A program made the translations under genes and the position numbers. Shown piece by piece: positions 1-64,000 of a DNA stretch of 64,000 nucleotides (its first letter is position 1; each line of letters starts with the position of its first letter). The notes beneath the pieces are model-generated. The model saw nothing but the letters and a program-made list of their open reading frames with translations. It made no database searches and had not been told where the DNA came from. The DNA is taken from assembly GCA_947172415.1 (NCBI GenBank), contig OX359196.1, positions 560,501-624,500 on the forward strand, written 5' to 3'. This DNA is from Chondrosia reniformis (lineage: Eukaryota > Porifera > Demospongiae > Chondrillida > Chondrillidae).

Positions 1-3000
1 TATCAGGTCTCTACTTTGATATGGTGTGTCAGGTGAGACTTGGGTTTGACCAATGTGACAGAAACAGTGTCATTAAACAGGGACTGTCCAGTGTGTGTGT
101 GTGTGTGTGCCAGCACAAAGGACCCAGGGGGTGTGGTGACAGGATGGTGTTGATGGTGGAGGGTCATGTTGTGAGGTTCGCTAGGCTGGCACTCGCCACC
201 ACACGAAGCTTCCGAGTTGGCTGTCTCTTCCTGCAACCTTGTGGCCCTACGTGGACACACACACACCTGTCCTGTTGAAATGCTGCCATTACACGGCCAC
301 GCTTGTCCAGTGTGTGTGTGTGTGGTGTGTGGTGTGTGGTGTGTGTGTGTGGTGTGTGTGTGTGTGGTGTGGTGTGTGTGTGTGGTGTGTGTGTGTGGTG
401 TGTGTGTGTGTGTGTTAGGTTCATTTTATATTGCTTGCCGTGTCACAGGTGGTGTCCGTGTGTGTTGTTCCTGCGAAGGAATATGGAGTGGTGAAGGTCT
501 GGGATGGCACTAAACCTAATCTGTGAGTCGGGTATAGCGTGCATGTATACATACAACTCAGGTATAGAGTTTATCACACTGAATTTTACGTAATTGGTTT
601 ACGCGATAATGCGTTTCCCGTGCGTGTCCTATAAAACGGAAAAGTCTCCCATGCTCCGAAGATTCGTACAGTTGCAGAAATTTCCAAGATTATGTCTTTC
701 AAGGCTGTTCAGGTAGAGGGTGCCTTAGATAGGTATCTAACACTGGACCAGAAGGGGAGCATTATCGCTACGTATGTATGGATAGACGGGAGCGGCGAGT
801 GCTTGCGCGCAAAGTCTAGAACTTTGAATCGGCTACCAAAAGACCCGAAAGAGCTGCCTATTTGGAACTTTGACGGATCCAGCACTGGCCAGGCGGCGGG
901 ACACGACTCTGACGTTCTATTAACTGCAGTTGCGATCTTCAAGGATCCATTTCTTCGTGGAGATAACATTCTTGTGTTGTGCGAGTGCTCCACTCCTGAT
1001 GGCACACCAGTGGCCTCTAATCATCGGAGGACATGCGTAGAAAGAATGGAAAAGGTCAAAGAGCACGAACCTTGGTTTGGGATTGAACAAGAGTATTCCC
1101 TATTGGACCCTATTGATGACTATCCTTATGGTTGGCCCAAAAACGGTTTCCCCGCCCCCCAGGGGCCCTACTACTGTGCTGTTGGAGCAGACAGGATATT
1201 TGGAAGAAGTGTGGTTGAAGCACATTACCGAGCTTGTCTCTTTGCTGGTATCCAAGTGGCAGGTACCAATGCTGAAGTCATGCCAGGACAGGTCAGTTTG
1301 TGTGTGTATGAAATTGTGATGAAGAAGTCAAAAATCATTTTTCTTTAATTAGTGGGAGTACCAGGTGGGTCCATGTACTGGTATTGAGATGGGAGACCAG
1401 CTGTGGATGTCAAGATACATTCTTCATCGTGTGTGTGAAGATTTTGGTGTAAAAGCCACTTTGGATCCCAAACCAGTTCCAGGAGATTGGAATGGGGCCG
1501 GTGCACACTGTAACTATAGCACTAAAAAGATGCGTGAAGAGGGAGGTATGAAAGTAATTAATGAGGCAATTGAGGAGCTCTCTAAGCATCATCAGGAGCA
1601 CATCAAGCTTTACGACCCCAAAAGTGGCCAAGATAACAAGAGGAGGTTGACCGGAGCTCATGAAACTGCTCACATTGATGAGTTTCGTCACGGAGTGGCC
1701 GATAGAGGAGCAAGTATTCGTATTCCGAGGCCTGTGGCCCTGGTGGGAAAGGGTTATCTTGAAGACAGACGTCCATCCAGTAACTGTGATCCATACTTGG
1801 TAACTGAAGCTTTAGTGCGGTCAACCATCCTGAAAGATTGGAAGAGATAGATGTGTTTTTGTAGTTCTACTCATTACAGAACAAATATTTAACATTTTTT
1901 ATATCCAAGTCTGTTACTCACTGTATTATAATTGTTATTTTTTAAGTAGACAATCCAAACTTGTTTGATTTGTATACCAAGCAAGCAGTTTCATGCACTT
2001 AAGGGCACTTGAGTATATTACAATATTGTAGTAAGGACCACAGCGGATATTACTTAGTGAGCACTTATATATGAAATAGGTAAGTGGCTTGGAATGTCAG
2101 CACCAATTATTTGAAGTCCTTGTGTATCCTGATCTTTTAAAAGAGAAATTTAAATAAAATGATTTAGAAATATGAAGTCGCTGTCATCATTCCTTTGTCC
2201 AATCATGCAAGATCACTTCATTGCAGTTATGTAATAGTTGAAAGGAGTTGCATCATGGCTCATATAGTTGCGGCCTGGTGCTGTTATAATGTATAGCAAT
2301 TGTGTCATTTCTTTATGAAGATTAAAGTCATGCTCAAACCACAAGTATGTGCATGTATATATTCAACATTGTAGTCTTTGCTTACCTTTTCACAAACTTT
2401 CTTTTATGTAACTTCCAAAAGTTACAATTAACACTGAATCCTTGCAAGCTCCAAATACATCAAGGGTTATGAAGATACTTAGAAATTACATGAAATCCTT
2501 CTCCTAGTATACTAAAAACTTATCTGCTTATAATATATGCAGGAAGGTCAAAGAAGCTGAAAGATATGGAACTCTAACACAGTAAGAACTAATTATAATT
2601 GTAACAGGGGATATCCAATTGATAAGGTCTTAATGTAGTCAGACTAGTTGAAGAATATTTATGTAGCAGGCAACCTAAAGCCAATTTTCTAACTGCATGT
2701 GTATATATACTGGATACAATGTGTACAATATACAGTACATACTGAGGCATTCCAAAGTGATTAGTCTACAGTAACTAACTGTAATGGGTGGAATGAGCTA
2801 TAATGGGCGGAATGGATGTCCACTTAATGGCAAGTAGAGTCTAATGATTGACATAGGGTCTATATTTGTATTGATAAGTAATAATATCATTCAAATATGA
2901 TGATTAGTACTGTTAATGATATAATGTGCCCACGTACATGCTATGAAGATGATTATACAGGACACACACCCTCTCTCTCTCTCTCTTTCCAGATCAGATC

Positions 3001-6037: not shown

Positions 6038-6406
6038 TTCTGTGTACTTATATAGCTGTATGTATTACAAAACTCTAAATTTACGAAAACGTGATCAACA
6101 CATACGCCTAACAAGGAATGCTTTTTAAAAATTAAAGGCGCTAGATCGCCTGATTGACGATCTTACTGATGACTGACTGACTGATTGACGGAGCGAATCA
6201 CATTTCCCTGCAAATTCTTGCGGGGCAATTAGAAGCAACACGTGAAAGAGCATGTGGTTAGGTGAACTACGAACTAAAGTCGGCCGGCGTTCTTGTTACA
6301 CTTGAACAAATGCTCTTGGATATCCAGGCTCTTTACCAGGTGTAAAGTGCAGAAAGTTGTCCCAAGATTTCGTTCGGTTTATACAGTTGCAGAAATTTCC
6401 AAGATT
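6038..6406. other. POT1-GS2 intergenic DNA and GS2 upstream region
   Basis: Contains the POT1 3' UTR and a short GATT-rich stretch (6140-6190, repeated gactgactgattgac). The 25 bases just before the GS2 start are identical to those before GS1 (tacagttgcagaaatttcc and on), so the duplicated block starts upstream of the ATG. No TATA box is clear. Confidence 0.5.
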
Positions 6407-7566
6407 ATGTCTTTCAAGGCTGTTCAGGTAGAGGGTGCCTTAGATAGGTATCTAACACTGGACCAGCAGGGGAGCATTATCGCTACGTATGTATGGATAG
6501 ACGGGAGCGGCGAGTGCTTGCGCGCAAAGTCTAGAACTTTGAATCAGCTACCAAAAGACCCGAAAGAGCTGCCTATTTGGACCTTTGACGGATCCAGCAC
6601 TGGACAGGCCTCAGTACACGATTCTGAGGTTCTATTAACTGCAGTTGCAATCTTCAAGGATCCATTTCTTCGTGGAGATAACATTCTTGTGTTGTGCGAG
6701 TGCTCCACTCCTGATGGTACACCAGTGGCCTCTAATCATCGGAGGACATGCGTTGAAAGAATGGAAAAGGTCAAAGAGCACGAACCTTGGTTTGGGATTG
6801 AACAAGAGTACTTGCTATTGGACCCTATTGATGACTATCCTTATGGTTGGCCCAAAAACGGTTTCCCCGCCCCCCAGGGGCCCTACTACTGTGCTGTTGG
6901 AGCAGACAGGATATTTGGAAGAAGTGTGGTTGAAGCACATTACCGAGCTTGTCTCTTTGCTGGTATCAAAGTTGACGGCATAAATGCTGAGGGTATGCCT
7001 GGACAAGTCAGTTTGTGTGTGTATGAAATTGTGATGAAGAAGTGAAAAAATCATTTTTCTTTAATTAGTGGGAGTACCAGGTGGGTCCATGTACTGGTAT
7101 TGAGATGGGAGACCAGCTGTGGATGTCAAGATACATTCTTCATCGTGTGTGTGAAGATTTTGGTGTAAAAGCCACTTTGGATCCCAAACCAGTTCCAGGA
7201 GATTGGAATGGGGCCGGTGCACACTGTAACTATAGCACTAAAAAGATGCGTGAAGAGGGAGGTATGAAAGTAATTAATGAGGCAATTGAGGAGCTCTCTA
7301 AGCATCATCAGGAGCACATCAAGCTTTATGACCCCAAAAGTGGCCAGGATAACAAGAGGAGGTTGACCGGAGCTCATGAAACTGCTCACATTGATGAGTT
7401 TCGTCACGGAGTGGCCGATAGAGGAGCAAGTATTCGTATTCCGAGGCCTGTGGCCCTGGTGGGAAAGGGTTATCTTGAAGACAGACGTCCATCCAGTAAC
7501 TGTGATCCATACTTGGTAACTGAAGCTTTAGTGCGGTCAACCATCCTGAAAGATTGGAAGAGATAG
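6407..7566 (+). CDS. Glutamine synthetase 2, recent tandem copy with altered active-site flank
   Basis: Exons 6407-7006 and 7069-7566, intron 62 bases, 365 aa. Exon 2 encodes the same protein as GS1 with two silent differences seen, and the introns differ by one or two bases. Exon 1 carries dense changes in two patches: around 6600-6632 (GQASVHDSE instead of GQAAGHDSD) and 6966-7006. The second patch changes 188-196 from QVAGTNAEV to KVDGINAEG, beside the catalytic glutamate, which is kept. N59 of the WNFDGSST loop is T. The upstream frame stays open for about 43 codons but has no ATG, only a TTG, so I start at 6407. It could be a working isoform, a specialised one or an early pseudogene. There is no stop or frameshift. 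Confidence 0.9.
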
Positions 7567-7645
7567 ATGTGCTTTATCAAAGAACATTTTAGCATTTTAA
7601 TTGCTCACTTTATTAATATTATTCATTTGGTAATTTTACATTTCT

Positions 7646-7745
7646 ACTGGAAGAAACATGGATTGGATTGGATGGACAGTTTTAGAATAAGAATAAAGTC
7701 TTTGTACTTTTGCATGTATAGCTGTACTTTGTATTTCAAATGTTA
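7646..7745 (+). pseudogene. Relic of the POT1 3' end behind GS2
   Basis: Downstream of GS2, bases 7650-7690 (gaagaaacatgg, then gacagttttagaataa) align with the last codons and stop of POT1 at 5986-6037 (gaagaagcacgg, then gacagttttagaataa). There is a gap of about 9-10 bases. Similarity continues into the 3' UTR (tgtactt, tatagctgta). It is read as what remains of a second POT1 tail copied together with GS. An AATAAA at 7692-7697 may now serve GS2. Confidence 0.6.
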
Positions 7746-7835
7746 TGCTTCAATTAGAAGCCTTATACGAAGACATAGAAGGCCTAGGGTACAAATATTA
7801 ATGCTTCACACTTCATTGCATGCAAGTGCGACAAG

Positions 7836-10521
7836 ATGGCCGGTATTCTGAGTAGGCTTAGCAGAGGATTCGTTGGAGTAAGCTTAAGGAGAGTTAGACC
7901 GTCAATCTGCGTGGGTGCTGCTGCGAGGAAATATTCATGGCGCCTTCCTCCGGTAGAGGGCGCTTATATGAAGTACATCAACCTCGACCAGAAGGGCAAG
8001 ATTATAGCAACTTACGTCTGGATTGACGGGACTGGAGAGAACGTGCGCAGTAAGGCTAGAACGCTAGACTCCCTTCCCCAGTCAGTGGACGCTCTTCCTC
8101 TGTGGAACTTCGATGGGTCCAGCACGGGTCAGGCCATTGGGAAGAACTCTGACATTATCATGAAGCCAGTTGCCATTTACAGGGATCCCTTTCTGGGGGG
8201 AGATAACATTCTAGTCCTCACAGATTGCTACAAGCCTGATGGTAGTCCGGCCGATTCCAATCATCGCAATTCCTGTAAGGAGGTCATGGATAAAGTGGCG
8301 TCGCACGATCCGTGGTTTGGGATAGAGCAGGAATACAACATGCTCGACCCACTGGACGACTACCCATACGGTTTTCAGAAAGGCGCCTTTCCGGGACCTC
8401 AGGGACCCTACTACTGTGCGGCCGGGGCGGACAGGATATTTGGGAGGAGTGTTTGCGATGCGCATTTTAAAGCTTGTCTCTTTGCTGAACTAGAAATCAC
8501 GGGTACCAACGCTGAAGTCATGCCAGGGCAGGCGAGTGGTGCCGTGTGTTTATGTCTTATTCCATTGAATTCCAGGGTGCAGGACCTTGGTTGTGTGTAT
8601 GTTTGAATAGGTAACATCAACATGTTTGCGAATGTGAAGCGCTCTTATAACAACGATTTTAAAAATCTATGTAGTAGTCTAAATTGTTGAGTTAGTCCTC
8701 GTGTTTGGGGTGTGAAAGATGGATGGAGTGAAAAGGGGTCAAGGCAGTGGTTAGATTTTCCAAGGGGGGTCTTTTATGAAAGAAAAAAATACCCCATTTG
8801 TACCTCAAACCGTGTATAGTGCATGTATCAGAGAGTACGGTAGTACTCTCTAAGTAGGAATGGCCGGAAAAAAAAATGGCCGCCCTATCCAATGTATTAG
8901 CAATCAACACCTCATAAATCGCCAACGAAGCGATTTTCGGTTATATTCGGTTATTTGCAGCGATTAATGCACGCTTTCCTAAATGCCAAAACATGTTTCG
9001 ACGCTCTACACGCTGTATAGCGTTCAAAAAGCGGCTAACTAGGAATAGACCCACTTCCAAAATTCATTTTTTCTTCTTCTTCTTCTTTTATTGAATAGAC
9101 TAGCGCTAATATGCGAACTTATGCGGGCACGTACTAGTTATAAATCGTCATAAATATTTCGGAGCTAGGGAATAGACAGCCCTAAATCTGAATGCGCTCT
9201 ACAATAAGCATGTTAATTGTGAAGAGCGAAAATTGTGGTCTTCTCGGACGCCATTTTTTAATTAAGAGATCATGGTTTTCGGCATATTTCTCTTGTCTAA
9301 GACGTTATTTTGAGATCTTCGCCAAGAAAACTTTCAAATCAATTTAAAACTAGTAATATTAAGAGGAAAAAAGGGGGAATACAAGTAAATAAAAAGCATT
9401 TACAAAAATGAAGTTAGAAGTAGGAATGGTAGTGTTCACTAATACATCTGCAAAAAGTATCGAAACAAGACACTGATTATATGATAAGGCTAATCATACA
9501 GAAGTTGCATATATACTGAAATTTAAGTAAATTAACCATACACTTCTGTGTTTGGGCGCACCATTCCTACTTAAGGTTAGTGCGCCCAAACACAGAAGTG
9601 TATGGTTAATTTACTTAAATTTCAGTATATATGCAACTTCTGTATGATTAGCCTTATCATATAATCAGTGTCTTGTTTCGATACTTTTTGCAGATGTATT
9701 AGTGAACACTACCATTCCTACTTCTAACATCATTTTTGTAAATGCTTTTTATTTACTTGTAGCTATTTTGTCTATTAATTGCCATGTGCAACTGAGACAT
9801 CTTTAACTTATCAACTGTAATTTGTATTACTGAAGGAACTTTTACTGCCATGGCAATATTGGGTAACTAATAAAGAGTGATAGGTCTAGCTGTCACTGTA
9901 TCATATTTGATCCTGTCAAGAGAAAGACAAAGACTTTGTCTTTTCCTATCTTAATCTTCTGTGAATCTGTGATCTTCATATATGATTGAATATATTGTGC
10001 ATTTTGTTGCTCCTTCTTTGCAGTGGGAATATCAGATTGGTCCTTCCAAAGGTATTTCAATGGGCGACCAAATATGGATCTCAAGGTACATTCTTCATCG
10101 TGTGGCAGAAGACTTTGCCATCAAGATCACCCTTGACCCAAAGTGCATGCCCGGAGACTGGAACGGAGCAGGGGCGCACTGCAACTTTAGCACCAAGGAG
10201 ATGAGAGAGGAAGGCGGTATAAAGTACATCAATGAAGCCATCGATCAGTTGGCCAAGTACCACAAGGAGCACATAAGGTGGTACGATCCCAATGGAGGAG
10301 AGGACAATAAGAGGAGGTTGACTGGTCTCCACGAAACAGCCCATATTGATGACTTCTCAAGTGGCGTAGCTCACCGCGGAGCTTCTGTGCGCATCACTCG
10401 TCTCGTAGAGAAGGCCGGCAAGGGTTACCTCGAGGACAGGAGGCCATCCAGCAACATGGACCCATATCGGGTGACAGAAGCCATGGTGCGTTCCATTGTC
10501 TTGAAGGATTGGAATATATAA
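7836..10521 (+). CDS. Glutamine synthetase 3, mitochondrial, with a GC-AG intron
   Basis: Exons 7836-8531 and 10024-10521, 397 aa. Residues 1-34 (beginning [14 protein letters not shown]) are rich in Arg, Ser and Ala with no acidic residue, a typical matrix-targeting presequence. GS motifs follow: [23 protein letters not shown] joined to WEYQ, NGAGAH and EDRRPSSN. The intron (8532-10023) starts GCGAGT after CAG and ends TTTGCAG. The only in-frame GT alternative, after 8543, would insert four residues into the catalytic motif. The intron carries the palindrome at 9381-9760. Divergence from GS1/GS2 shows an older duplication, and targeting suggests ammonia capture in mitochondria. Confidence 0.93.
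9381..9760. mobile_element. 380-base near-perfect palindrome (foldback element) in the GS3 intron
   Basis: Arms 9381-9561 and 9580-9760 are reverse complements over about 181 bases with one mismatch seen (9412) and an 18-base loop. Positions pair exactly around 9570.5. Each arm is one copy of a roughly 200-base unit that also occurs alone at 54719-54922 and is bordered by AAGTAGGAATGGT. It would form a long hairpin in the GS3 pre-mRNA. No protein is encoded. Confidence 0.9.
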
Positions 10522-19600: not shown

Positions 19601-22600
19601 ATGGATGGATGGATGGATGGTTGGATGGATGGATGGATGGATGGATGGATGGATAAATTGACAAACTGGTGGAATATTAGGTGAGTCTTAATACGTTAAC
19701 ATAAACTTACTTGAAAGAAAACTAAAAAATTGTCTAGCTTTTTCTTGTTGCTCCCGTGATCAAAGTACGGTCCACAAGAGTCGAGTAGCACACAAATCAG
19801 TCTCACTCTGAAGTAGGAATCCGGCAGGTCTAGGTAGGAGGGGGAGCCATCGGGGTTCCATCCGAAGGAGAGCAGAGAGTAGAGAGTTCGAAAGATGACC
19901 TGGGACTCCACCAGTTGATAGATGTACATTTCTCCCAAGAACTTGATCATGCTGACTCTCCGTTGGTTCAGTTTGGGCCAGTTCAACTCCATACCAATTC
20001 TGATGTCCTCCAGTGTAGCATCAACCACCTGTATGACAGCCTCCATCTGGTGGGCAGCCAACCCCGCGAGGATATTGGCTACAGATTGGATGTTGTTGAA
20101 CTTCACGTTCCATACTCCAGTCAGAATCTGGACTGCATTCGTAAACACCTGCACAAGTGAGAATGGAGTGAATAAGGCAACACCTTCTGATAATGCAATG
20201 ATGTACCTCTGGGTCGTTCCATGGAAGCTTGCGAAGTAACTTGAGTATCTATGGAAACCAGAACACAACATGCAGTCTGTAAACAGGTGTAGGCCTGTGT
20301 TAGTCAACGTACCTTTTCACTTGTGACCTTATTCAAGTCTTTATACAACAACTTAATCATGTATTCCACAATTGGTGCTCGTCTGACCTTCATCACCTGA
20401 GTGAAGGAGGGAGGTTGACACTATAGAGATTACCATGGCAACAGGAAAATTACCTTAGTAGCCTCAGGAGGGTTTGCATAATATATGGCATTATCAATCA
20501 TGCTCATGTGTTGAGGGCTCAAGTGGAGAGCCTTCTTCTTACGAATCAGCATTTCCTGTGTACAGAAGATTCATGTGAGGAGCATGTGAGGAACATGTGA
20601 TCAGCATGTGAGGAGCATGTGACTGGCTCACAAGTATAGCTTTAGTCCGAGGTTGAGAATCCGGTGATCGCAGGAGATACCTGCCACAGTGCTCCAACAT
20701 TAAACAGGCCATCTCAACAGACGCTGGAGAAAAGTCTTGAACCATGAGCTAGTTATAGAAGGGAAAGAGAGGAAGGAGAGTGGAAAGGAGGGGAGAGGAG
20801 TGGAGAGGAGGGGAAGAGAGGAGAGAGGAGAGGAGAGTGGAGGGGAGGGGAGGGGAAGAGAGGAGAGTGGAGGGGAGGGGAGAGGGAGAAAGGAGGAGAG
20901 ATAAGCAGAGAGGAGAGACGAGAAGAGACAAGGACAGAGGAGAGGGGAAATGATGAACATACTAACCTGAAGGTGAAAGTGCATATAGAGATGTTGAGAT
21001 ACAAGCTCAAATTGACTTACTGTTAAGCATCGCATTGTTTCTGGTTTTGAGCAAGTTTTAAATTTTGTGCACTCAGCTAAATATCAGTGATACAGAAGAA
21101 ACCTCAGTGAAATCCTCCCCATTGCATAATGTACGATTGTCATACCTAAGAACCGGACGACTTTCAGTTTAGATTGTATGTGTACGGTAGCATCCTTCTT
21201 GTACACCTGCATAAGTCAGACATACAAGCATTACACCTTCCTCTGGAGGGGACTCCCCTAGCCACTAGCTAATGGAAGGATTAAGGAGGGGACTCCCCTA
21301 GCCACTAACTAATGGAAGGATTAAGGAGGGGACTCCCCTAGCCACTAGCTAATGGAAGGATTATGGAGGGGACTCCCCTAGCCACTAAATAATGGAAGGA
21401 TTATGGAGGGGACTCCCCTAGCCACTAAATAATGGAAGGATTAAGGAGGGGACTCCCCTAGCCACTAGCTAATGGAAGGATTATGGAGGGGACTCCCTTA
21501 GCCACTAAATAATGGAAGGATTATGGAGGGGACTCCCCTAGCCACTAAATAATGGAAGGATTATGGAGGGGACTCCCCTAGCCACTAACTAATGGAAGGA
21601 TTATGGAGGGGACTCCCCTGGCTGCTAGTTAAGTGAAAGGAGAGTCCATTTTGCTTCTGTTAAAACTTTCAGATTCAAATTTGCAGTGATACAGAATACA
21701 TAGACCTAGTATTGTCACACTTTATATATGCTTACATATATTTTGAGGTTTCTAATAAGCATGGACACCAGATCCTCTGACATGTCTGGAAGAAGAGGAT
21801 GGAGGGTTGCTATTAGACGTCCGTAGAAGGGAAGCAGGTCCATCCTGTATAAATAGTGAGTGCACAGGAAGTAGGATTACAACAGGAAGTAGGATTAAAA
21901 CAGTAAGTAGGATTAAAACAGTAAGTAGAATTACAACGGGAAGACTGCAGGTAAAGGATAAGCTGATGTATTTAACAGTTACAGCTTTTAGAGTTCTGAT
22001 GGTTGCTAGGAGACAGAGGCTGCATCAAAGGACTTACCTGTTTCTGCTGACATTGAAGAGAGTGCTAACAAACTTGTGTCTGTTTCCTTTTGTGTTGAGC
22101 TTCATACAAAACTCAGTTGCAAGCTGCAAGGAAGGAAAATTATCTGTAGTGTGGGCCGGACCCGAGGATAAAAATGGCTGACTAGCTTGAGCTCGTTAAA
22201 TATGTCAACTTTCAAAATATTCTAATATTAGTATTAAATGATTAATACTGTCCAACCTCATCCACCATCTGTTTGTTAGTGCAGTTGGGCAAGCGAAGGA
22301 GGAAGTCATCAAAGCCGATAGTGGTCGGATTACTATCTTTTCTAGTGTCCTCCATATCTAACGTAAGACAACAAAATTCTCACAAACTGATCTCAAATCA
22401 GAAGAGGTACAGAGGGGAGATAACCCAACAAACTAGGTACGTGAGTCTAATGTACATATTTAATGTCACACTTGATGGTGCACATAGATACTCAATTCCG
22501 TGGTCTACTTACAGTACATTGAAGGTCAGATTCGGCATACCTTCAAACTCGAGCTTTTCTTCGTCTTCCAAACTTAAAGGTTCTAAATCATCTACGAGAA

Positions 22601-36738: not shown

Positions 36739-37412
36739 ATGGAGGACGCAGTGGAGCAACAAATGGAAGAAATGTAACCAAAGATTAACTTTCTGTAAAC
36801 GTCTTTACGTTATTGAATCACTGCTTTCTTCTCCTCTTTCTTCTCAGAATGTCACAACCAGGTGTAGTAGGTGCCTTGTTGGTCGATAATGCGGGATTAC
36901 CAATATCGGGTGAGATTCACGAGTGCTTGTGTAATGGTGGTCCATTCCTAACTGTCACATGCACGTAGGGTTCAGAAATATCACATGGCATGAAAATGGC
37001 CGACTAATGTCACTGCGCACATTGCCTCATGGATAGGAAGCATACACTATGTGTGTGACGGACCATACTTGTGTCATTGTTCTGTGTATATCTCCTTATT
37101 TAGCCAAAGGGACTACTAAGCAAGATGGTGCAGGAATTGTTACATTGCTGTCAAAGAAATCGAAACAGCTAGGTCATGCGATTGGTCAAGGGGAGGACCC
37201 TACAATAGTCATTGAATGTGACACAGGGTTTGTTGAATACACTTATCTTTGAGATGGTACACTCATCTTTGAAGGGTAGCACTTGTCATATTTGTAGTTT
37301 TGTACCACAAGAGTATGTTCAAAGAGCTAAATGTGTCACTTCTCTTTCTTGTAGAACGTTATTGATAAGGCCGCAGAAGCTGGCAACACTGGTGATTCAA
37401 AAGAGTACATGA
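36739..37412 (+). CDS. LAMTOR5: Ragulator subunit LAMTOR5 (HBXIP)
   Basis: Roadblock-fold subunit of the lysosomal Ragulator complex, which anchors Rag GTPases and mTORC1. Exons 36739-36773, 36848-36909, 37104-37227 and 37355-37412 (TGA) give 92 aa, against 91 in human. The start MEDAVEQQMEE, then VVGALLVDNAGLPIS, the AGIVTLLSKK helix, IVIECDTG and a final LLIRPQKLATLVIQK strand follow the family along its length. An AATAAA lies at 37485-37490. The gene converges on the SH2/WW/VCA gene, whose stop is 268 bases away. Confidence 0.93.
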
Positions 37413-37484
37413 ACAGTGAATCACTCTTGGATACATTGCATAACGTTTTCTGTTAATATTATATATTTCACACAAAATTATAAG

Positions 37485-37679: not shown

Positions 37680-40600
37680 CTAGTCTTGGTCCCATTCATC
37701 ATCCCCCCATTCATCGTCGTCCTCCACCTCCTCACACTCACTATCACTGTCTTGAATGAACTGTCTGCGTTGGTCAATAGCCTGGCTCATCATGTCACCA
37801 AACCCTCCAAGGTTGGCCTTCTTCTCTCTTGGAAGTGTTCTGGTGCTCTTTAGTGACACCAGTCTAGACTGCAAGTCATTGGCTGTGAAGCTCCTTGAAG
37901 AGTGTGAGATTGCTGGACTGTTTGGCAAGCTACGGCTTAGCATGTCCTCTGGGGGAGGGGATAGGCTCGGTGGGGGGAGGCAAGGAGGTGGAGGTGGAGG
38001 AACAGGAGGTCCACCAGGTGTCGGCTGGGGTGGGGAGACTGATGGACCAGCTGGGGTGGGCTGGGGTGGGGAGACTGATGGACCAGCTGGGGTGGGCTGG
38101 GGTGGGGAGACTGATGGACCAGCTGGGGTGGGCTGGGGTGGGGAGACTGATGGACCAGCTGGGGTGGGCTGGGGTGGGGAGACTGATGGACCAGCTGGGG
38201 TGGGCTGGGGTGGGGAGACTGATGGACCACCAGGTGTCGGCTGGGGTGGCAAGACTGATGGACCGGCTGGGGCGGGCTGGGGTGGGGAGACTGATGGACC
38301 AGCTGGGGTGGGCTGGGGTGGCGAGACTGATGGACCGGCTGGGGTGGGCTGGGGTGGGGAGACTGATGGACCAGCTGGTGTTGGCTGGGATGGGGAGACT
38401 GATGGACCACCTGGTGTGGGCTGAGGTGGTGGAATGCTCCTAGTAGTGTGACTCGGAATATGTGGTACTGGCTCTGGTTCGGTGCTTTTTTCCGGCAGCG
38501 GAGGAGGACTTCTTTGTTTCTGTGCTATATGTGATACATCATTTCGACCAGCAGCCGGCCGCATGTCAGAATGATCCTGATGTCTGGAGGGAAGCTGTGG
38601 TGGGCCGTGATGATTTTCTTTTGGTTGCTCGTGATGATTGGCCTTAGAGGATGCTGGGAATTGGCTCTTTGTCAACTCAGGTCTCTGCACAGACTTACCG
38701 TGTGCATTTGCTTCAGGTGGAGGAGACTGCCTGACTGATTGATTTGGTTGTGGAAGAGGACGTGTAGCAGGGAAAGAAGGTTTTGGTTCCCCCTTCTCGG
38801 GGATGGGAGGTGGACCCTTTGCCCGTACATAAGGAGATTCCTTCTGCTTCATTGGAGGACACTCTTTAGAAGATGCACTCCTTATGGGCAAGGATTGTGA
38901 AGGTCCAGTGTCCTGGGGAATACTGGGAAGTGGCCGATTCCCTCGCTTGCTACTGTAAGGGGATTCCCCTGTAGCAACCTGGTCAGTGGCCCTAGAGTAG
39001 GGAGATTCCCGGTTCACAGACTGAGTTGAGCTTGCAGAGAAGGATTGTCCTCGCCTCTTAGGAAGAGTGGCACTCTTTGGCCTAGTTTCCTGTCCTGGTA
39101 GGGAGGGGAGAGGTCGACTATCCTTCTTGACCATAGGAGGCTCCCATTGTGTCTTCTTTGTCTCCTTGTTATAGTAATAGTATCTCTTGTGCTCTTTGTC
39201 AAAGTATCGCATCCAAGGTTCTGGAACGCCATCATCTGCAAGTGGAACACATCAAGTGACCATCATTTGACTACCATGTGATTATCATTTGACTACCATG
39301 TGATTATCATGTGACTGCCATGTGATTATCAGGTAACTATCATTTGAATACAATGTGATTATCATGTGATTATCATGTGACTACCATGTGATTATCAGGT
39401 AACTATCATTTGACTACCATGTGATTATCATGTGACTACTATGTGATTATCATGTGACTGCCATAACAACCTGCACACATGTTCGTACGTACCAACATTG
39501 TTTGGTGAAAGTGGAGCTGCTTCATTGAAAGGTATTGGATTGGTTAGGTAGATTCCTACTCCTTTTACTTTACTCTTTAACGGATGTGTGGAGTAACCCT
39601 TCAGCAGTTCGCCAAGTGATGCAAATGACTTCTTACTTATATTACAAACACCAGTTTGTGGGTTGTGTGTTATTTTAAAATTCATGATCGTTCCGTCATG
39701 TCTACAAGCAAGAAGAGATATCTTTGTAAACATGGCAATATTAGTGGGTGATAGGTTACTCTAAAGTAAGGAAGACACTTACACAACACAAATGGTTAGT
39801 TTTCCACTGGAAGTTGAACTCGGCCTTATTAGGTAAGCACCATTTTGACCGATGTATGGCTGGAAGACGGACTGGATATGTTCTCGTGCCAAGTTCATGT
39901 GAATACAGTTAACCTCGGTCTTTGTCTTATTATCCAGAAACATTTGTTCGTTGTTTGCCGGTACTACTTTCACAGATGGAACTCTTGAATTTGTTCCATC
40001 TTTTGTGGGCAGAGGTCTATTGTTGAGCGGTCCATCTCTTGCGGGTAACGGAGGTACTCCATCAGTGGGCACCCGTCCCCTTTGGAGTTGTCCGTCTCTT
40101 GTGGGTAATGGTGATTGTCCATCAGTATATAGCCGTCCTCTTGTGGGCGGGCCTCTGGAAGTGGGCGGACCTTCTTTTGTGGGTAATTGTGGCCTTCCAT
40201 TGGTGGGCTGTCCTCTTGTGGGCGGGCCTCTGGAAGTGGGCGGACCGTCTCTTGTGGGTAATGGTGGCCCTCCATTGGTGGGCTGTCCTCTTGTGGGCGG
40301 GCCTCTGGAAGTGGGCGGACCTTCTCTTGTGGGTAATGGTGGCCCTCCATTGGTGGGCTGTCCTCTTGTGGGCGGGCCTCTGGAAGTGGGCGGACCTTCT
40401 CTTGTGGGTAATGGTGGCCCTCCGTTGGTGGGCGGGCCTCTTGAAGTGGGCGGGCCTCTTGAAGTGGGCGGACCTTCTCTTGTGGGTAATGGTGGCCCTC
40501 CGTTGGTGGGCTGTCCTCTTGTGGGCGGGCCTCTGGAAGTGGGCGGACTTGTGGGTACCTCATCTAATTGAGACATCCATATAAAAGTGCAGTCAATATC

Positions 40601-41603
40601 CCTAACCCTTATATGCATATTCAACCTACATACATACTGTATGCTATATCAACCCCTTAATAATGTACTTTTGTAAATTATAAGGTTCACTGTGATTCAG
40701 TCACAATCCATCTACGTACACCTAAATAAATTAATTTAAAAATATGGTTTTCATGGCAACCAGAAAGCCATAAATGCTATTCCTATCCTTTAAAAGGATC
40801 ATCTTTTGACTTTTAGAACATTTAAAGATGCAGTTTTGTTGTCTCTTCTTGATTGTCAGACGTTTCGACCCCGAGGATCTCCTTCAGTGACTCCTCTAAA
40901 AGTCGAAAGATGATCCTTTCAAAAGATAAGTTCGACGCAGTTAGAAGAAATCCTTATTCTATTAATACTACTCCTACTCACTTTGTTTCACAAAAATTCC
41001 ATATTCACCTTTTGTGGTTTTCCAGCCATCAAATGGTTCCTTCAGAGTGACGTGCGACTCCTGCTTTATTGAGGTCTGCCTGTAATACTGAATCAGGTCA
41101 CTGACTGTGGGAAACTTGTGAGATGCATTTATAAAGTATTTCCTTGAGCTAACGTCCTCTTGGATTGGGTACTTTAATATCCTTGACTTATTCCTACATG
41201 AAATATTACAAAGAAGTGAAATCAAATTGAAATGGGAGATTAAAATGAAATTGAGGGCATAATTGTGTTTGTGTGTCGCTCCAAACTGCACACAAGACGC
41301 ATCTACCACTTACATCACACTCAGAGTCAACTTTGCATTTCCTGAATTACTAGGTCGAATAATAAACCTCCCATCTTCACTTGTGAACTTTTGTAAGATG
41401 TGGTTTGCCTGAGAGAAGGTAATTAACAAGTACACAGTTATTAGTCACAGTTTATAAGAATTTGTTTCCCCTTGTGAATGTACATACATACTTAACTACC
41501 CTCCTCCACAATTGCCCCGCCCCCTCTTTCATTGCCCCGCCCACAACAAGCCCACCTCATCCTTTGAAGCATTCTTGTAGCCAGGTATTCCATTAAATGC
41601 CAT
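37680..41603 (-). CDS. SH2-SH2-WW-proline-rich protein with a WASP-like C-terminal VCA tail
   Basis: Exons, 5' to 3': 41603-41556, 41408-41314, 41193-41009, 40563-39783, 39701-39493, 39235-37680. Phases close: 957 aa. SH2-1 about 17-105 with the phosphotyrosine arginine in FIIRPSN. Proline-rich 25-residue repeats about 115-290. SH2-2 about 315-430 with YLIRPSS. WW domain W447-W470 with YYYY before NKETKK. PPQPTPAGPSVS 12-residue repeats about 711-843. C-terminus: a helix GFGDMMSQAIDQRRQFIQ like the WASP connector, then an acidic end with W949 and W954 (EDDDEWGDDEWDQD), like Arp2/3-binding tails. A WH2-like LQSRLVSLKST lies before it but is short and atypical. WH1 and GTPase-binding domains of WASP are absent. 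Likely role: coupling phosphotyrosine signals to Arp2/3 actin assembly (inference). The ATG may not be the true start, since the frame is open a few codons upstream after an acceptor-like site. Confidence 0.85.
38020..38425 (-). repeat. Coding 36-base proline repeat in the SH2/WW/VCA gene
   Basis: About 11 near-identical units encoding QPTPAGPSVSPP. Near identity at DNA level shows recent expansion. Poly-proline runs of this kind usually bind profilin, SH3 or WW domains. Confidence 0.9.
39255..39468. repeat. CATGTGATTATCATGTGACTAC repeat in an intron of the SH2/WW/VCA gene
   Basis: Irregular 11-23 base units of ATGTGATTATC and ATTTGACTACC fill most of the intron 39236-39492. Confidence 0.85.
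40130..40555 (-). repeat. Coding 75-base proline repeat in the SH2/WW/VCA gene
   Basis: About six copies, some shortened, of a 25-residue unit containing PPTSRGPPTRGQP and GPPLPTREG, between the two SH2 domains. All three forward and reverse frames are open, giving false frames on the other strand. Confidence 0.9.
40794..40919. mobile_element. Small foldback element in an intron of the SH2/WW/VCA gene
   Basis: AAAGGATCATCTTTTGACTT (40794 onward) and its near reverse complement at 40895-40919 (AAAGTCGAAAGATGATCCTT) frame about 78 bases. A related single arm lies at 17796-17852 (AAAGTCGAAAGATGAACCTT) with shared inner sequence. Confidence 0.6.
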
Positions 41604-42930
41604 TACAGGAAACAGGAAGTCTATAAAAACAGGAAGTATAATAAATAATGACATACCTTGATCTAAATGGTTAAATGCATAAACACTCTTGTGGACTGGA
41701 GCGCTGAGACATACGTAGCATAATTATAGTGTGTATGCATATTATTGTGCTTACGGCACTAGTTAAGGTATAATAGACACGGACAATGTCCTTTGAGATA
41801 TAGTATTATTAAAGTATAGATTCAGAATTCAAAGGCATTCATTGATATTCACATATTACAGGCAGTTTCACTTTTTGTACAATTAATTTTACAGTTTGCC
41901 ACCAAAATGGAATGTATGCATTATACGTACTTCTGCAAAAATCTCATAATAATAATTCATTAGTTATGTCCACACTGAAACTAGTTCATTGGTCAGTGCA
42001 AACACAACTGTTGACAAAAGTGCAATTTGAATTGCTCTTCAATTCACCTCAAGACACACACAGATGTCAAGCAATACTAGAGTACAAGAGAGCCTAGCTA
42101 GGAGACAGCCGACACCTGAAGTGTGGAGGAGGGACTGGAATATCAGTCACTAGTTACACACAAGTAATTATTAGATACAACATACCTAAACAATACCATG
42201 GAAGCCAAACTAAACTAACAAATACTTATCCCTCCTACAAGTGTCCATAATTTAAGGGTTTCACCCAGTGTTCCAATTTCACACTTTGTTGATGAAACAA
42301 CTCTTCAAATATTTCTGTTCACCAGTTCAGGGTAACTTGATCTGTGAAACTTCTAACATAAACTTTAGGTTGTATTTGTAACTTGTAACTTCATCTGTGA
42401 AACTTCCAACAAAACCAACAACACACTTGCAACACAAACCAGAAGTTGTATTGTATTGAACAATCTAACTTGAAAGTATTTATGCTAAACTTTTCAATGA
42501 CCTTACGTACCTATGTACGTATTTATTATTTTATTGCATTGTGAAAGTTTACATGATAAAGAACTTGGGCTTGATTTCTGTAAACTTGGAAAAGTTTCCT
42601 CAGATGCTTCTAAAAGTTATTCTTGAAATAAATATTCAAGCACACACAATTTTGAGTGCCTACTGAGGGGACCAACAGTTAGTCTGTCAGTCATCTACAG
42701 TGTCTTAATAGAGTCATTATGGTTCCATAACACAACTGGTTAACATGTGAGCTGTGCATTTAGTGTAAATTCAACATGTTGATTGTTTATACATACGTAT
42801 GAACTACATAAATGAATGTGAAAATAAGCAGTATTAATGAAAGTGAGATATATCAAAACAAGAAGCCTTCAAGAAAATGGATACATTAAGACCCGTACAC
42901 ACGGCTAAAATCACTTATATAGGATGGCCT
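41604..42930. other. Upstream flank of the SH2/WW/VCA gene
   Basis: AT-rich, no coding signal that I can support. Further 5' exons of the preceding minus-strand gene may exist here but were not found. Confidence 0.4.
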
Positions 42931-42935
42931 CACAC

Positions 42936-43712
42936 ACAATCACATGTACACATTCATGTACACATTCATGTACACACATACACACATGTACACACACAAA
43001 CACATGTACACATTCATGTACACACATACACACATGTACACACACAAACACATGTACACATTCATGTACACATTCATGTACACACATACACACAGTACAC
43101 ATTCATGTACACACATATACACATGTACACATTCATGTACACATACACACATGTACACATTCATGTACACACATACACACATGTACACACACAAACACAT
43201 GTACACACACAAACACATGTACACACACAAACACATGTACACACACAAACACATGTACACACACAAACACATGTACACACACAAACACATGTACACACAC
43301 AAACACATGTACACATTCATGTACACACATACACACATGTACACACACAAACACATGTACACATTCATGTACACATTCATGTACACACATACACACAGTA
43401 CACATTCATGTACACACATATACACATGTACACATTCATGTACACACATACACACATGTACACATTCATGTACACACATACACACATGTACACACACAAA
43501 CACATGTACACACACAAACACATGTACACACACAAACACATGTACACATTCATGTACACACATACACACATGTACACACACAAACACATGTACACACACA
43601 AACACATGTACACACACAAACACATGTACACACACAAACACATGTACACACACAAACACATGTACACACACAAACACATGTACACACACAAACACATGTA
43701 CACATTCATGTA
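42936..43712. repeat. CACATGTACA minisatellite
   Basis: Tandem ACACACAAACACATGTAC and ACATTCATGTAC units over about 780 bases, with a block of about 280 bases duplicated (42940-43190 versus 43300-43550). Frames of up to 278 aa across it are artefacts. Confidence 0.95.
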
Positions 43713-44017
43713 GTAAGGGAGTTAATTGCACTATAAGGCTATGATGATAAGCAAATATTCATTGGAAAATATTACGCTAAACCAGCCAAGTTTGGTGTAA
43801 TATTTTCCAGTGATTATTTGTACATACAAAGTACATACATATTCACAACATACACACTAAGGGAGTTAATTGCACTGAGCCGGTACAAAGGCTATGTTGC
43901 TAAGTAACAGTTGCTAAGTAGTAATCACTGGGAACATACAGTACTATGCCAAGCCAGCCAAGTGACCACAGTCTAATCTTGGCTGGGGTCCCCTAGAGAC
44001 TTTTGGTCCCCTAGCCA

Positions 44018-60360: not shown

Positions 60361-60684
60361 GACACCAGGTTGGGATGGAGACGTGTGTCTACTTCGTGAG
60401 GTTCAATGTACATATATGCAAGTACTAGACTCACAGTTAACCTATATAGATATTATATGCAAGCGTTAGCAGAAATATATCCATATAAATATATGTTAGA
60501 CTATTTTGGCCTCTATATCTCATGACACATTCATTAGCAGATGTGAGTGAAAAAGTGATTTCAGGTAAATCCTTGCTTAGTGTCATAGAACTAAATATAT
60601 AATTAATGTGTGTTATTAAAATGATACTCAAACAAGGATTTATTTTCTGTCTCTCCTTGAAGTTAATTTTTAACTTCTTCCCTT

Positions 60685-61545
60685 TATGCCACTCTCTCCC
60701 TCTCTATGCCATCCTCTCCCTCTCTATGCCACCCTCTCCCTCTCTATGCCACCCTCTCCCTCTCTATGCCACCCTCTCCCTCTCTATGCCACCCTCTCCC
60801 TCTCTATGCCACCCTCTCCCTCTCTATGCCACCCTCTCCCTCTCTATGCCACCCTCTTCCTCTCTATGCCACTCTCTCCCTCTCTATGCCACTCTCTCCC
60901 TCTCTATGCCACCCTCTCCCTCTCTATGCCACCCTCTCCCTCTCTATGCCACCCTCTCCCTCTCTATGCCACCCTCTCCCTCTCTATGCCACTCTCTCCC
61001 TCTCTATGCCATCCTCTCCCTCTCTATGCCATCCTCTCCCTCTCTATGCCACCCTCTCCCTCTCTATGCCACCCTCTCCCTCTCTATGCCACCCTCTCCC
61101 TCTCTATGCCACCCTCTCCCTCTCTATGCCACCCTCTCCCTCTCTATGCCATCCTCTCCCTCTCTATGCCACCCTCTCCCTCTCTATGCCACCCTCTCCC
61201 TCTCTATGCCACCCTCTCCCTCTCTATGCCACCCTCTCCCTCTCTATGCCACCCTCTCCCTCTCTATGCCACCCTCTTCCTCTCTATGCCACCCTCTCCC
61301 TCTCTATGCCACCCTCTCCCTCTCTATGCCACCCTCTCCCTCTCTATGCCACCCTCTCCCTCTCTATGCCACCCTCTCCCTCTCTATGCCATCCTCTCCC
61401 TCTCTATGCCACCCTCTCCCTCTCTATGCCACCCTCTCCCTCTCTATGCCACCCTCTCCCTCTCTATGCCATCCTCTCCCTCTCTATGCCACCCTCTCCC
61501 TCTCTATGCCATCCTCTCCCTCTCTATGCCACTCTCTCCCTCTCA
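60685..61545. repeat. 20-base minisatellite, about 43 copies
   Basis: Unit TCTCTATGCCACCCTCTCCC with strict period 20 and rare C/T changes. Three plus frames stay open for about 300 codons as a result. Confidence 0.97.
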
Positions 61546-61549
61546 TCTC

Positions 61550-62000
61550 TCTTTCTACCCCCTAAATATACATTCATTTGAGTTAAGAAAGTCACTAAAT
61601 ATTTCCCATTGCTGATCTACTGTAAGTCTACTCAGGGTATTGATTTTCACTTATTAATTAAATTAGTTTGGCAATATAGAATATTTCTAAAGATTCTAAT
61701 AGAAGTTAGCAGCTGCTAATTGTTCCCACAAGATTCCCCAATGCCAACAAATATACACGTTATTGAAAGTCCTAATGGTGATGTCAGACATGCTTTAGTT
61801 GCAAAGTACAGGTCTTCAGAAGACCTGTTTTAGGAGAACCTATAAGAGTTGTGTACTGAGCTGTTTAAGCTAACTTGGAAGGTTTTGTTCACTGCTTGAT
61901 TGCATTTTGTGGTCACTGGCATGAGACTTAATGGCCTCCTTAATAGTTAAAGGATTTCCTTAATCCTATGTTATTAGCTGGTTCACAGCTATTGGTTGTC
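61550..62000. other. Spacer between two minisatellites
   Basis: AT-rich, no feature seen. Confidence 0.4.
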
Positions 62001-62005
62001 ACTAC

Positions 62006-63100
62006 CCCTCCCCTATCCAGCTACTCCTCCCCTATCCAGCTACCCCTCTCCTATCCAGCTACTCCTCTCCTATCCAGCTACCCCTCTCCTATCCAGCTAC
62101 CCCTCCCCTATCCAGCTACCCCTCCCCTATCCAGCTACCCCTCTCCTATCCAGCTACCCCTCTCCTATCCAGCTACCCCTCCCCTATCCAGCTACCCCTC
62201 TCCTATCCAGCTACCCCTCCCCTATCCAGCTACCCCTCTCCTATCCAGCTATCCCTCTCCTATCCAGCTACCCCTCTCCTATCCAGCTACCCCTCCCCTA
62301 TCCAGCTACCCCTCTCCTATCCAGCTACCCCTCCCCTATCCAGCTACCCCTCTCCTATCCAGCTACCCCTCTCCTATCCAGCTACCCCTCCCCTATCCAG
62401 CTACCCCTCTCCTATCCAGCTACCCCTCTCCTATCCAGCTACCCCTCTCCTATCCAGCTACCCCTCTCCTATCCAGCTACCCCTCCCCTATCCAGCTACC
62501 CCTCTCCTATCCAGCTACCCCTCCCCTATCCAGCTACCCCTCTCCTATCCAGCTACCCCTCTCCTATCCAGCTACCCCTCTCCTATCCAGCTACCCCTCT
62601 CCTATCCAGCTACCCCTCTCCTATCCAGCTACCCCTCTCCTATCCAGCTACCCCTCTCCTATCCAGCTACCCCTCTCCTATCCAGCTACCCCTCCCCTAT
62701 CCAGCTACCCCTCTCCTATCCAGCTACCCCTCTCCTATCCAGCTACTCCTCTCCTATCCAGCTACCCCTCCCATATCCAGCTACCCCTCTCCTATCCAGC
62801 TACCCCTCCCCTATCCAGCTACCCCTCTCCTATCCAGCTACCCCTCCCCTATCCAGCTACCCCTCTCCTATCCAGCTACTCCTCTCCTATCCAGCTACCC
62901 CTCCCATATCCAGCTACCCCTCTCCTATCCAGCTACCCCTCCCCTATCCAGCTACCCCTCTCCTATCCAGCTACCCCTCTCCTATCCAGCTACTCCTCTC
63001 CTATCCAGCTACCCCTCCCATATCCAGCTACCCCTCCCATATCCAGCTACCCCTCCCCTATCCAGCTACCCCTCTCCTATCCAGCTACTCCTCCCCTACA
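62006..63100. repeat. 19-base minisatellite, about 57 copies
   Basis: Unit TATCCAGCTACCCCTCTCC with T/C variants, period 19. Open frames of 378-388 aa across it are artefacts. Confidence 0.97.
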
Positions 63101-64000
63101 ATAGAGAAAGTACTGACTTTCATTTTGTATATACTCTCAGAACCACCAGAATGGACACCTAGCAATTCATGAGAGTCCTCTTATTATAAGGTATGACTGT
63201 GCTGCTGTCAGCCCCACATTATGTACCCGCAAGCATTTGCTTCCTTCTAAAGGTTTAAGTATTTTATATATTCCTAAATTACTGTTAACGGATGTGTTTC
63301 TGTGGTGACTTATCTGTGTTGTGTTAACCAGCAAAACTGCTATTGCTTGCGTAGTCTTGTAGCGATACAAACTGCTCCTATAATGTAACCTCGGAGGAGT
63401 GCTGCCTATCTGAAGATATGATTTGTAAAGCTGTTATAAGTGTTCTTTGGAACATCTGTGAGCTTTGTTAACAGTGTAATACAATGGTAAAGTGAACATC
63501 TGAAAGGCAAGTCGGAAGACGTATACAAGAGACAGTGATTTAGGAATCTGAAAAAATAAGGAAACTTGTATTGCTCATGCTGTATGTATGTACGTACTGG
63601 TGTGACTTATATGTGGATATATATCCATATTGATGCACTAATATAAATGTATAATGTACTCTATGGTAATGCTTTAATGTGTATATTTAATTTTGTCAAC
63701 TAAACGGCCACAATTTATTGCCAATTATAAGTACAAATGAAATTTAACTTACAATAAAAGGAAATGGTACCCATCGGAGACTTGAGTCTTGTTTTCATTC
63801 AAAGCATTACTATACTGCACATAATACATCAAGCGTATCACAGCTTGATCAATTAATTAACTTAAAGTAATTGAACCGTATTGAGGAAGTACATCTCTTC
63901 TCCATGTTTTAGTGGTTAAGACCTGCTGAGCCATACTGCTATTGTAGTTAGAATTGTATAACCTTCCACATTATATGCACTGTACTGTAATTCCATTGGA
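63101..64000. other. Gene-free DNA at the right edge
   Basis: AT-rich; an AATAAA at about 63753 might end a transcript but no exon is seen. Confidence 0.35.

What the first reader, a model, noticed from the sequence alone, without database searches (positions are those of the whole stretch)
37680..41603. A phosphotyrosine-reading WASP-like protein: SH2-SH2-WW-proline repeats-VCA tail
The six-exon model encodes two SH2 domains with intact arginines (FIIRPS, YLIRPS), a WW domain, two proline-rich repeat regions and a C-terminus resembling the connector helix plus acidic tail of WASP/N-WASP, with two tryptophans near the end. WASP-family proteins are normally recruited through WH1 and GTPase-binding domains, which are absent here. 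Direct coupling of tyrosine phosphorylation to Arp2/3 by one polypeptide would be a new wiring. I know of no such architecture, but I could not search.
Basis: partly seen in the sequence, partly recalled or inferred. Interest (0 to 1): 0.88.

Follow-up and report, generated by a model that had tools for sequence, protein, structure and literature searches.

The report
Sponge SH2 protein with WASP-like tail
A sponge gene model joins two phosphotyrosine-reading domains to a tail resembling the one by which WASP proteins grip the actin-branching Arp2/3 complex, but without WASP's actin-binding motif; if real, one protein would do a job usually split among several.

Summary
A six-exon minus-strand model gives 966 aa with two SH2 domains, a WW domain, two proline-rich repeat blocks and an acidic C-terminus.

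The tail is only partly as described. Its connector is WASP-like: the core from the sponge's own WASP finds it as the best of 127,864 six-frame windows (40, next 22); 10 of 3.1 billion random windows score as high, though standard searches see little. The acidic part has two tryptophans. The WH2 ("V") motif is not detectable: a profile that recovers 9 of 9 left-out own-genome WH2s scores the tail below zero, like shuffles. So it is SH2-SH2-WW-PRD-CA, not VCA.

Best reading: a phosphotyrosine-directed adaptor that brings Arp2/3 to signalling sites, actin monomers coming in trans. Phosphotyrosine and Arp2/3 binding are inferred. No relative was found, but I had no eukaryote collection to search and no RNA evidence.

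The parts
41556..41603 (-). Exon 1 (start codon; N-terminal start of SH2-1)
   Evidence: donor GAG|gtgggc is the least consensus-like of the five (my reading); an upstream exon is not excluded
41314..41408 (-). Exon 2 (SH2-1, contains FIIRPS with the pocket arginine, 41366-41349)
40982..41193 (-). Exon 3 (rest of SH2-1)
39783..40563 (-). Exon 4: 25-residue proline-rich repeats with PPLP[T/A]R motifs, then start of SH2-2 (YLIRPS at 39835-39818)
39493..39701 (-). Exon 5 (rest of SH2-2); same entry and exit phase as exon 3
37680..39235 (-). Exon 6: WW domain, three ESPY motifs, proline-rich region, 12-residue repeats, polyproline, CA tail, stop
39135..39224 (-). WW domain, residues 453-482
   Evidence: Pfam PF00397
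38823..39008 (-). Three ESPY motifs (residues 525, 539, 581), possible tyrosine phosphorylation sites
   Evidence: phosphorylation is inference
38016..38447 (-). 12-residue tandem repeats (PTPAGPSVSPPQ type; 36-bp minisatellite)
37965..38015 (-). Polyproline stretch before the tail (GGPPVPPPPPPCLPPPS)
37842..37883 (-). Short predicted helix ending in LKST, where WH2 would be; not a detectable WH2
37743..37811 (-). Connector (C) core LGGFGDMMSQAIDQRRQFIQDSD, WASP-like, residues 924-946
37683..37742 (-). Acidic (A) tail with two tryptophans (DDDEWGDDEWDQD), residues 947-966

Best explanation
The gene encodes a phosphotyrosine-directed adaptor that carries a WASP-type Arp2/3-binding CA tail. The two SH2 domains dock on tyrosine-phosphorylated receptors, adhesion proteins or scaffolds; the CA tail (connector helix plus acidic, Trp-bearing end) holds Arp2/3 there. 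Because the WH2 motif is missing, actin monomers would have to come in trans, by profilin-actin on the polyproline stretch or by WASP, WAVE or a WIP-like protein gathered through the proline motifs, much as CA-bearing fungal myosins work with a separate WH2 protein (recalled). The WW domain and the many PPLPxR motifs may hold the protein closed until the SH2 domains are occupied, or recruit SH3 proteins. Shown: domain order in the gene model, pocket arginines, WASP-like C core, acidic Trp tail, no detectable WH2, no second copy of the tail found in the genome. Inferred: one transcript, phosphotyrosine binding, Arp2/3 binding, trans supply of actin, WW lock.
For: Splice model and phases; spliced SH2 and WW matches although no single exon in the window scores for SH2; the SH2s match SHP2, Syk, PLC-gamma, RASA1 and other chains in the PDB. 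The own-genome WASP C core finds the site first of 127,864 windows, 40 against 22 for the next, and 0 of 20,000 shuffles of the site reach 40; yardstick own WASP vs N-WASP is 44; random DNA reaches 40 in 10 of 3,107,160,000 windows. The N-WASP core ranks the site 2nd, own WAVE-type core b 2nd, the L020 core 4th. A G, R, I, S and D of the connector and EDDDxW of the acid end are shared by all three aligned tails. AF2 on the tail alone gives a helix over the connector (tail residues 44-64). Exon 6 has no ATG before residue 457, just past the WW domain's first Trp, so it needs an upstream exon. The own genome has pieces of an ordinary WASP gene and nine WH2 matches, seven over Pfam's cut-off, that could supply WH2 in trans.
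Against: No expression evidence was available. The own WASP tail as a whole-genome query returned only itself, and phmmer of the tail against the PDB gave N-WASP only at E=3, behind two unrelated chains, so the tail homology is weak by standard search. At the random rate about 0.8 windows of the whole genome would score 40 by chance. Own WAVE-type core a does not rank the site in its top four. Aligned with eight own-genome SH2s, both SH2s lack the usual betaD His (Lys and Asn instead) and the leading Trp, and SH2-1 has Lys for the alphaA Arg, so phosphotyrosine binding may be weak. No WH2. No ortholog seen.
Confidence: 0.55

Rival explanations
1. An SH2/WW/proline-rich signalling adaptor whose acidic C-terminus does not bind Arp2/3; the likeness to CA is fortuitous or a decayed relic.
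For: Weak by standard searches: N-WASP at E=3, no hit from the own WASP tail genome-wide; six queries were tried and five; scaled to the whole genome about 0.8 random windows would reach the same score (from the rate).
Against: The match lies where a C region must lie, between polyproline and a Trp-bearing acidic end, in register with conserved R, I and SD, and is far above every other window for the own WASP core.
Confidence: 0.22
2. A full nucleation-promoting factor: the short helix plus LKST before the connector is a shortened but working WH2, so the protein activates Arp2/3 by itself.
For: AF2 predicts a helix (tail 19-31) running into LKST, in the WH2 position; LKST is the only L-[KR]-[KRS]-[VTA] in the protein.
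Against: The own-genome WH2 profiles give the tail -1.1 to -1.6 bits in the seven of nine leave-one-out runs that report it; with all nine, 529 of 1000 shuffles score as high; 9 of 9 left-out WH2s are recovered. The published WH2 pattern (PMC3298513, passages), loosened in spacing, has no match in the protein.
Confidence: 0.12
3. Two genes: an SH2 gene (exons 1-3) and a second gene starting in exon 4, or SH2 exons that end by read-through after exon 5; the fusion is a prediction artefact.
For: Exon 4 has an upstream in-frame ATG giving MSQLDEVPTSPP; exon 5 read-through stops after about 20 codons; a minisatellite fills most of the exon 5/6 intron; no RNA seen.
Against: All joins are GT-AG with matching phase; exon 6 has no ATG before residue 457, inside the WW domain; exons 3 and 5 have the same phases and the two SH2s resemble each other (20 of 86 identical), as after an internal duplication. 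The SH2-2/WW/CA part holds even if exons 1-3 are a separate gene.
Confidence: 0.11

Closest known systems
WASP / N-WASP
   Same: WASP-type connector core and acidic Trp end after polyproline
   Different: No WH1 or PBD match, no WH2; two SH2 and a WW instead. The sponge also has, on contig C4:134495-137617, WH1, a sub-threshold PBD match, WH2 and a CA tail in that order on one strand, read as its ordinary WASP; I did not splice that gene.
Fungal coronins and class-1 myosins with added CA domains (PMC3298513, passage)
   Same: A CA region added to a protein outside the WASP family
   Different: Targeting is by beta-propeller or motor domains (recalled), not SH2; lineage and origin differ.
Nck-WIP-N-WASP pathway (PMC9333988, passages)
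   Same: Phosphotyrosine to SH2 to Arp2/3 logic
   Different: There the SH2 (Nck) and the Arp2/3 activator (N-WASP) are separate proteins.
WHIMP (PMC7112243, passages)
   Same: An unorthodox nucleation-promoting factor tied to tyrosine-kinase signalling
   Different: Has a WCA and some WAVE-like N-terminal sequence; the term SH2 does not occur in the held main text.
SH2 proteins SHP2, Syk, PLC-gamma, RASA1 (two SH2s each); also GADS, Grb2 and SH2B1
   Same: Solved SH2 relatives by sequence
   Different: The tandem ones carry catalytic or GAP domains and the adaptors carry SH3 or PH domains (recalled); the two SH2s here are about 255 residues apart, separated by proline repeats.

Membership tests
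WASP family (WCA nucleation-promoting factors) | WH2 motif | tested here: not met
   Pfam none at E<=10; own-genome WH2 profile negative, with 9 of 9 left-out controls found
WASP family (WCA nucleation-promoting factors) | Connector helix | tested here: met
   (sequence level only; weak)
WASP family (WCA nucleation-promoting factors) | Acidic tail with Trp near the end | tested here: met
WASP family (WCA nucleation-promoting factors) | Polyproline region before the tail | tested here: met
WASP subfamily | WH1 and GBD | tested here: not met
   no Pfam WH1 or PBD match at E<=10
WASP family (WCA nucleation-promoting factors) | Arp2/3 activation in vitro | not testable with these tools
   needs pyrene-actin assay
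CA-domain Arp2/3 binders (as fungal coronin, class-1 myosin) | C and A without WH2 on an unrelated targeting protein | tested here: met
   (sequence level)
CA-domain Arp2/3 binders (as fungal coronin, class-1 myosin) | Binds Arp2/3 | not testable with these tools
   needs pull-down
SH2 phosphotyrosine adaptors | SH2 profile match and betaB5 arginine | tested here: met
   (both domains)
SH2 phosphotyrosine adaptors | alphaA Arg and betaD His of the pocket | tested here: inconclusive
   SH2-1 Lys and Lys; SH2-2 Arg and Asn; role of these residues recalled

The most novel reading that the evidence does not exclude
A single polypeptide couples tyrosine phosphorylation directly to Arp2/3, replacing the SH2-adaptor/WASP relay, with a WW-PPLP intramolecular lock that phosphotyrosine binding releases; it would be an animal example of a CA tail grafted on an SH2 adaptor, made in a sponge that also keeps an ordinary WASP.
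Probability: 0.28. Interest if true: 0.8.

Novelty: new variant of a known kind. Interest (0 to 1): 0.62.

Why it matters
In the animal pathways I know, phosphotyrosine reading (Nck, Grb2) and Arp2/3 binding (WASP, WAVE) are split between proteins. A natural fusion would show that the relay can be collapsed, would be a ready-made module for testing what recruitment alone does to Arp2/3 without a WH2, and would show that early-branching animals wired tyrosine kinases to actin in ways not kept in model species.

Tried and rejected
Protein-database searches with three regions of the model (residues 360-500, 870-966, 1-120) gave 127, 42 and 23 word-sharing candidates and no hit; one scan of prokaryote genome contigs gave 26 pattern matches, none confirmed. 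These collections hold few or no eukaryotes as far as I could tell (inference), so absence says little. Rfam gave no match at gathering scores in the window. Paper searches aimed at the architecture gave 0, 2, 0, 3 and 0 papers; of these five papers I read passages of one (PMC3507883), which describe no such protein, and saw only the listing of the other four. Most subscription papers on SH2 inventories are not held, so I cannot say the architecture is unpublished.

The idea of a canonical VCA was rejected on the WH2 test. An earlier run of the WH2 profile did not report the real tail at all, while reporting 729 of 2000 shuffles. A WAVE-type origin of the connector was less favoured: three lengths of the own WASP core put the site first (40 vs 22, 37 vs 27, 27 vs 23) and three short WAVE-type cores did not list it in their top six; longer WAVE-type cores ranked it not in the top four (a), 2nd (b) and 4th (L020).

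The bacterial promoter/terminator scan is not informative for an animal genome and is not used.

Full report
Where it is. The window is C8:560501-624500 of a 117,379,552-base, 15-contig genome. The seven contig lengths I saw (10,409,357; 9,415,654; 8,954,400; 8,804,818; 8,125,224; 7,702,672; 7,633,987) agree with chromosomes 1, 3, 4, 5, 8, 9 and 11 of Chondrosia reniformis (chromosome 4: 8.95 against 8.96 Mb, the others to the table's precision), in a paper of which I read passages (PMC12181767).

The gene model. On the minus strand six exons join at five GT-AG introns with matching phases into 966 codons plus stop. SH2 is found twice and WW once after splicing, whereas the exon-by-exon genome scan for SH2 lists 82 places at E<=0.001 and none in this window. 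That the splices create both SH2 matches is good evidence for the joins within each SH2. Exons 3 and 5 both run from phase 2 to phase 1, and the two SH2s are 20 of 86 identical. Exon 6 has no ATG before residue 457, just past the first Trp of the WW domain, so it must be joined to something upstream. The weakest links are exon 3 to 4 (exon 4 has its own possible ATG) and the absence of RNA evidence.

The SH2 domains. Solved relatives by sequence include SHP2, Syk, PLC-gamma, RASA1 and Grb2-type adaptors (the best 60 of 103 and 60 of 61 matches are listed). Both have the FLVR-type arginine. Aligned with eight SH2s of the same genome (the eight best of the 82 places), both lack the leading Trp; the betaD His is Lys in SH2-1 and Asn in SH2-2 (Asn also in L008), and the alphaA Arg is Lys in SH2-1 and Arg in SH2-2. 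The naming of these pocket positions is recalled. Binding is plausible, not assured.

Middle parts. Between the SH2s lie 25-residue repeats with PPLP[T/A]R; the protein has nine PxxPx[RK] motifs and six PPLP. PPLP is a ligand type of some WW domains and PxxPxR of SH3 domains (recalled), so an internal WW-PPLP contact is possible. After the WW domain come three ESPY motifs, then 12-residue repeats from a 36-bp minisatellite, then polyproline.

The tail, C and A. The own-genome WASP tail lies next to a WH2 match, downstream of a WH1 match, and was read from L016; it matches N-WASP (WASL) chains in the PDB at 7e-6 to 7e-5. Its 23-residue C core, slid without gaps over all six frames of the window, puts 37743-37811 first of 127,864 windows at 40 against 22 for the next, and 0 of 20,000 shuffles of the site reach 40; own WASP against N-WASP is 44. 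In random DNA with the window's dinucleotide make-up 10 of 3,107,160,000 windows reach 40, so about 0.0004 are expected in the window, but about 0.8 in the whole genome: the position before the acidic end is part of the argument. Other cores: N-WASP ranks the site 2nd (22 against 23), own WAVE-type core b 2nd (25 against 27), L020 4th (21, level with the 3rd), own WAVE-type core a not in the top four. The names WAVE-type a and b (L014, L015) rest on their tails alone. Results against: phmmer of the tail in the PDB gives N-WASP at E=3 behind two unrelated chains, and the own WASP tail as a genome-wide query finds only itself. AF2 of the tail alone, mean pLDDT 66, places helices at tail residues 19-31 and 44-64, the second over the connector.

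The tail, V. Pfam WH2 does not appear, and the whole-genome WH2 search at E<=10 lists nine places, seven over Pfam's cut-off, none in the window. A profile of these nine, each left out in turn, finds the left-out one 9 of 9 times at 7.2 to 30.6 bits; the model tail scores -1.1 to -1.6 in the seven of nine runs that report it, and with all nine 529 of 1000 shuffles score at least as high. There is a predicted helix and an LKST where WH2 would be, which may be a relic.

What it does. In N-WASP V binds actin monomers and C and A bind Arp2/3; one paper says that C is indispensable for activation while A gives affinity (PMC5609757, passages). A CA tail without V should bind Arp2/3 and need actin from elsewhere. 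The published precedents are fungal coronins and class-1 myosins with added CA (PMC3298513, passage); that class-1 myosins use a separate verprolin for WH2 is recalled. The sponge has two loci whose WH2 reads like WIP/verprolin (L012, L013, label recalled). I therefore think most likely that SH2 docking on phosphotyrosine concentrates Arp2/3, with monomers supplied by profilin or by partners. The familiar route is phosphotyrosine, Nck SH2, WIP, N-WASP, Arp2/3 (PMC9333988, passages).

Novelty. By the definition in PMC7112243 (passages) WASP-family members have a WCA domain, so this is not one. It is a new combination within the known kind 'targeting protein plus CA'. In the own genome the tail query finds only itself; for the SH2-2+WW query the best match outside this locus is 26% identical at 8.7e-5, in another SH2 region. 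Paper searches showed me no description, but four of the five papers listed were not opened and the library lacks most subscription journals.

Noticed in passing
L027 (C1:434100-444045), ORFs 2242-2532 and 6800-8557, plus strand: Another unusual own-genome candidate: an exon-sized ORF matching the N-terminus of WAVE1 (2.4e-8 in the PDB) some 4 kb upstream of a 586-aa ORF with a WH2 below Pfam's cut-off, a WAVE-type connector and a short PEWED end. Whether the two ORFs are one gene was not tested.
   Followed up: partly
C9:1355353-1360658 (L008 for part): Two groups of three SH2 matches, each group with one common open-frame length (395 and 355 aa). The 355-aa frame was read and holds all three; the other was not read. 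An uncommon multi-SH2 layout.
   Followed up: partly
window 39251-39475: An 11-bp minisatellite fills most of the 257-bp intron between the SH2-2 and WW exons.
   Followed up: no
window 635-1850, 6278-7566, 7788-10521, + strand: Three tandem glutamine-synthetase-like genes (Pfam match for one ORF; the others by similar ORFs).
   Followed up: partly
window 19699-20316, - strand: MIF4G-domain ORF (2.1e-26).
   Followed up: no
window 36852-37455, + strand: A small gene reading like LAMTOR5/HBXIP (label recalled, not searched) lies tail to tail with the SH2-CA gene.
   Followed up: no
window 42900-43740, 60600-61600, 61950-63170: Long simple-repeat stretches that stay open in several frames; the ORFs there are probably not genes.
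   Followed up: no
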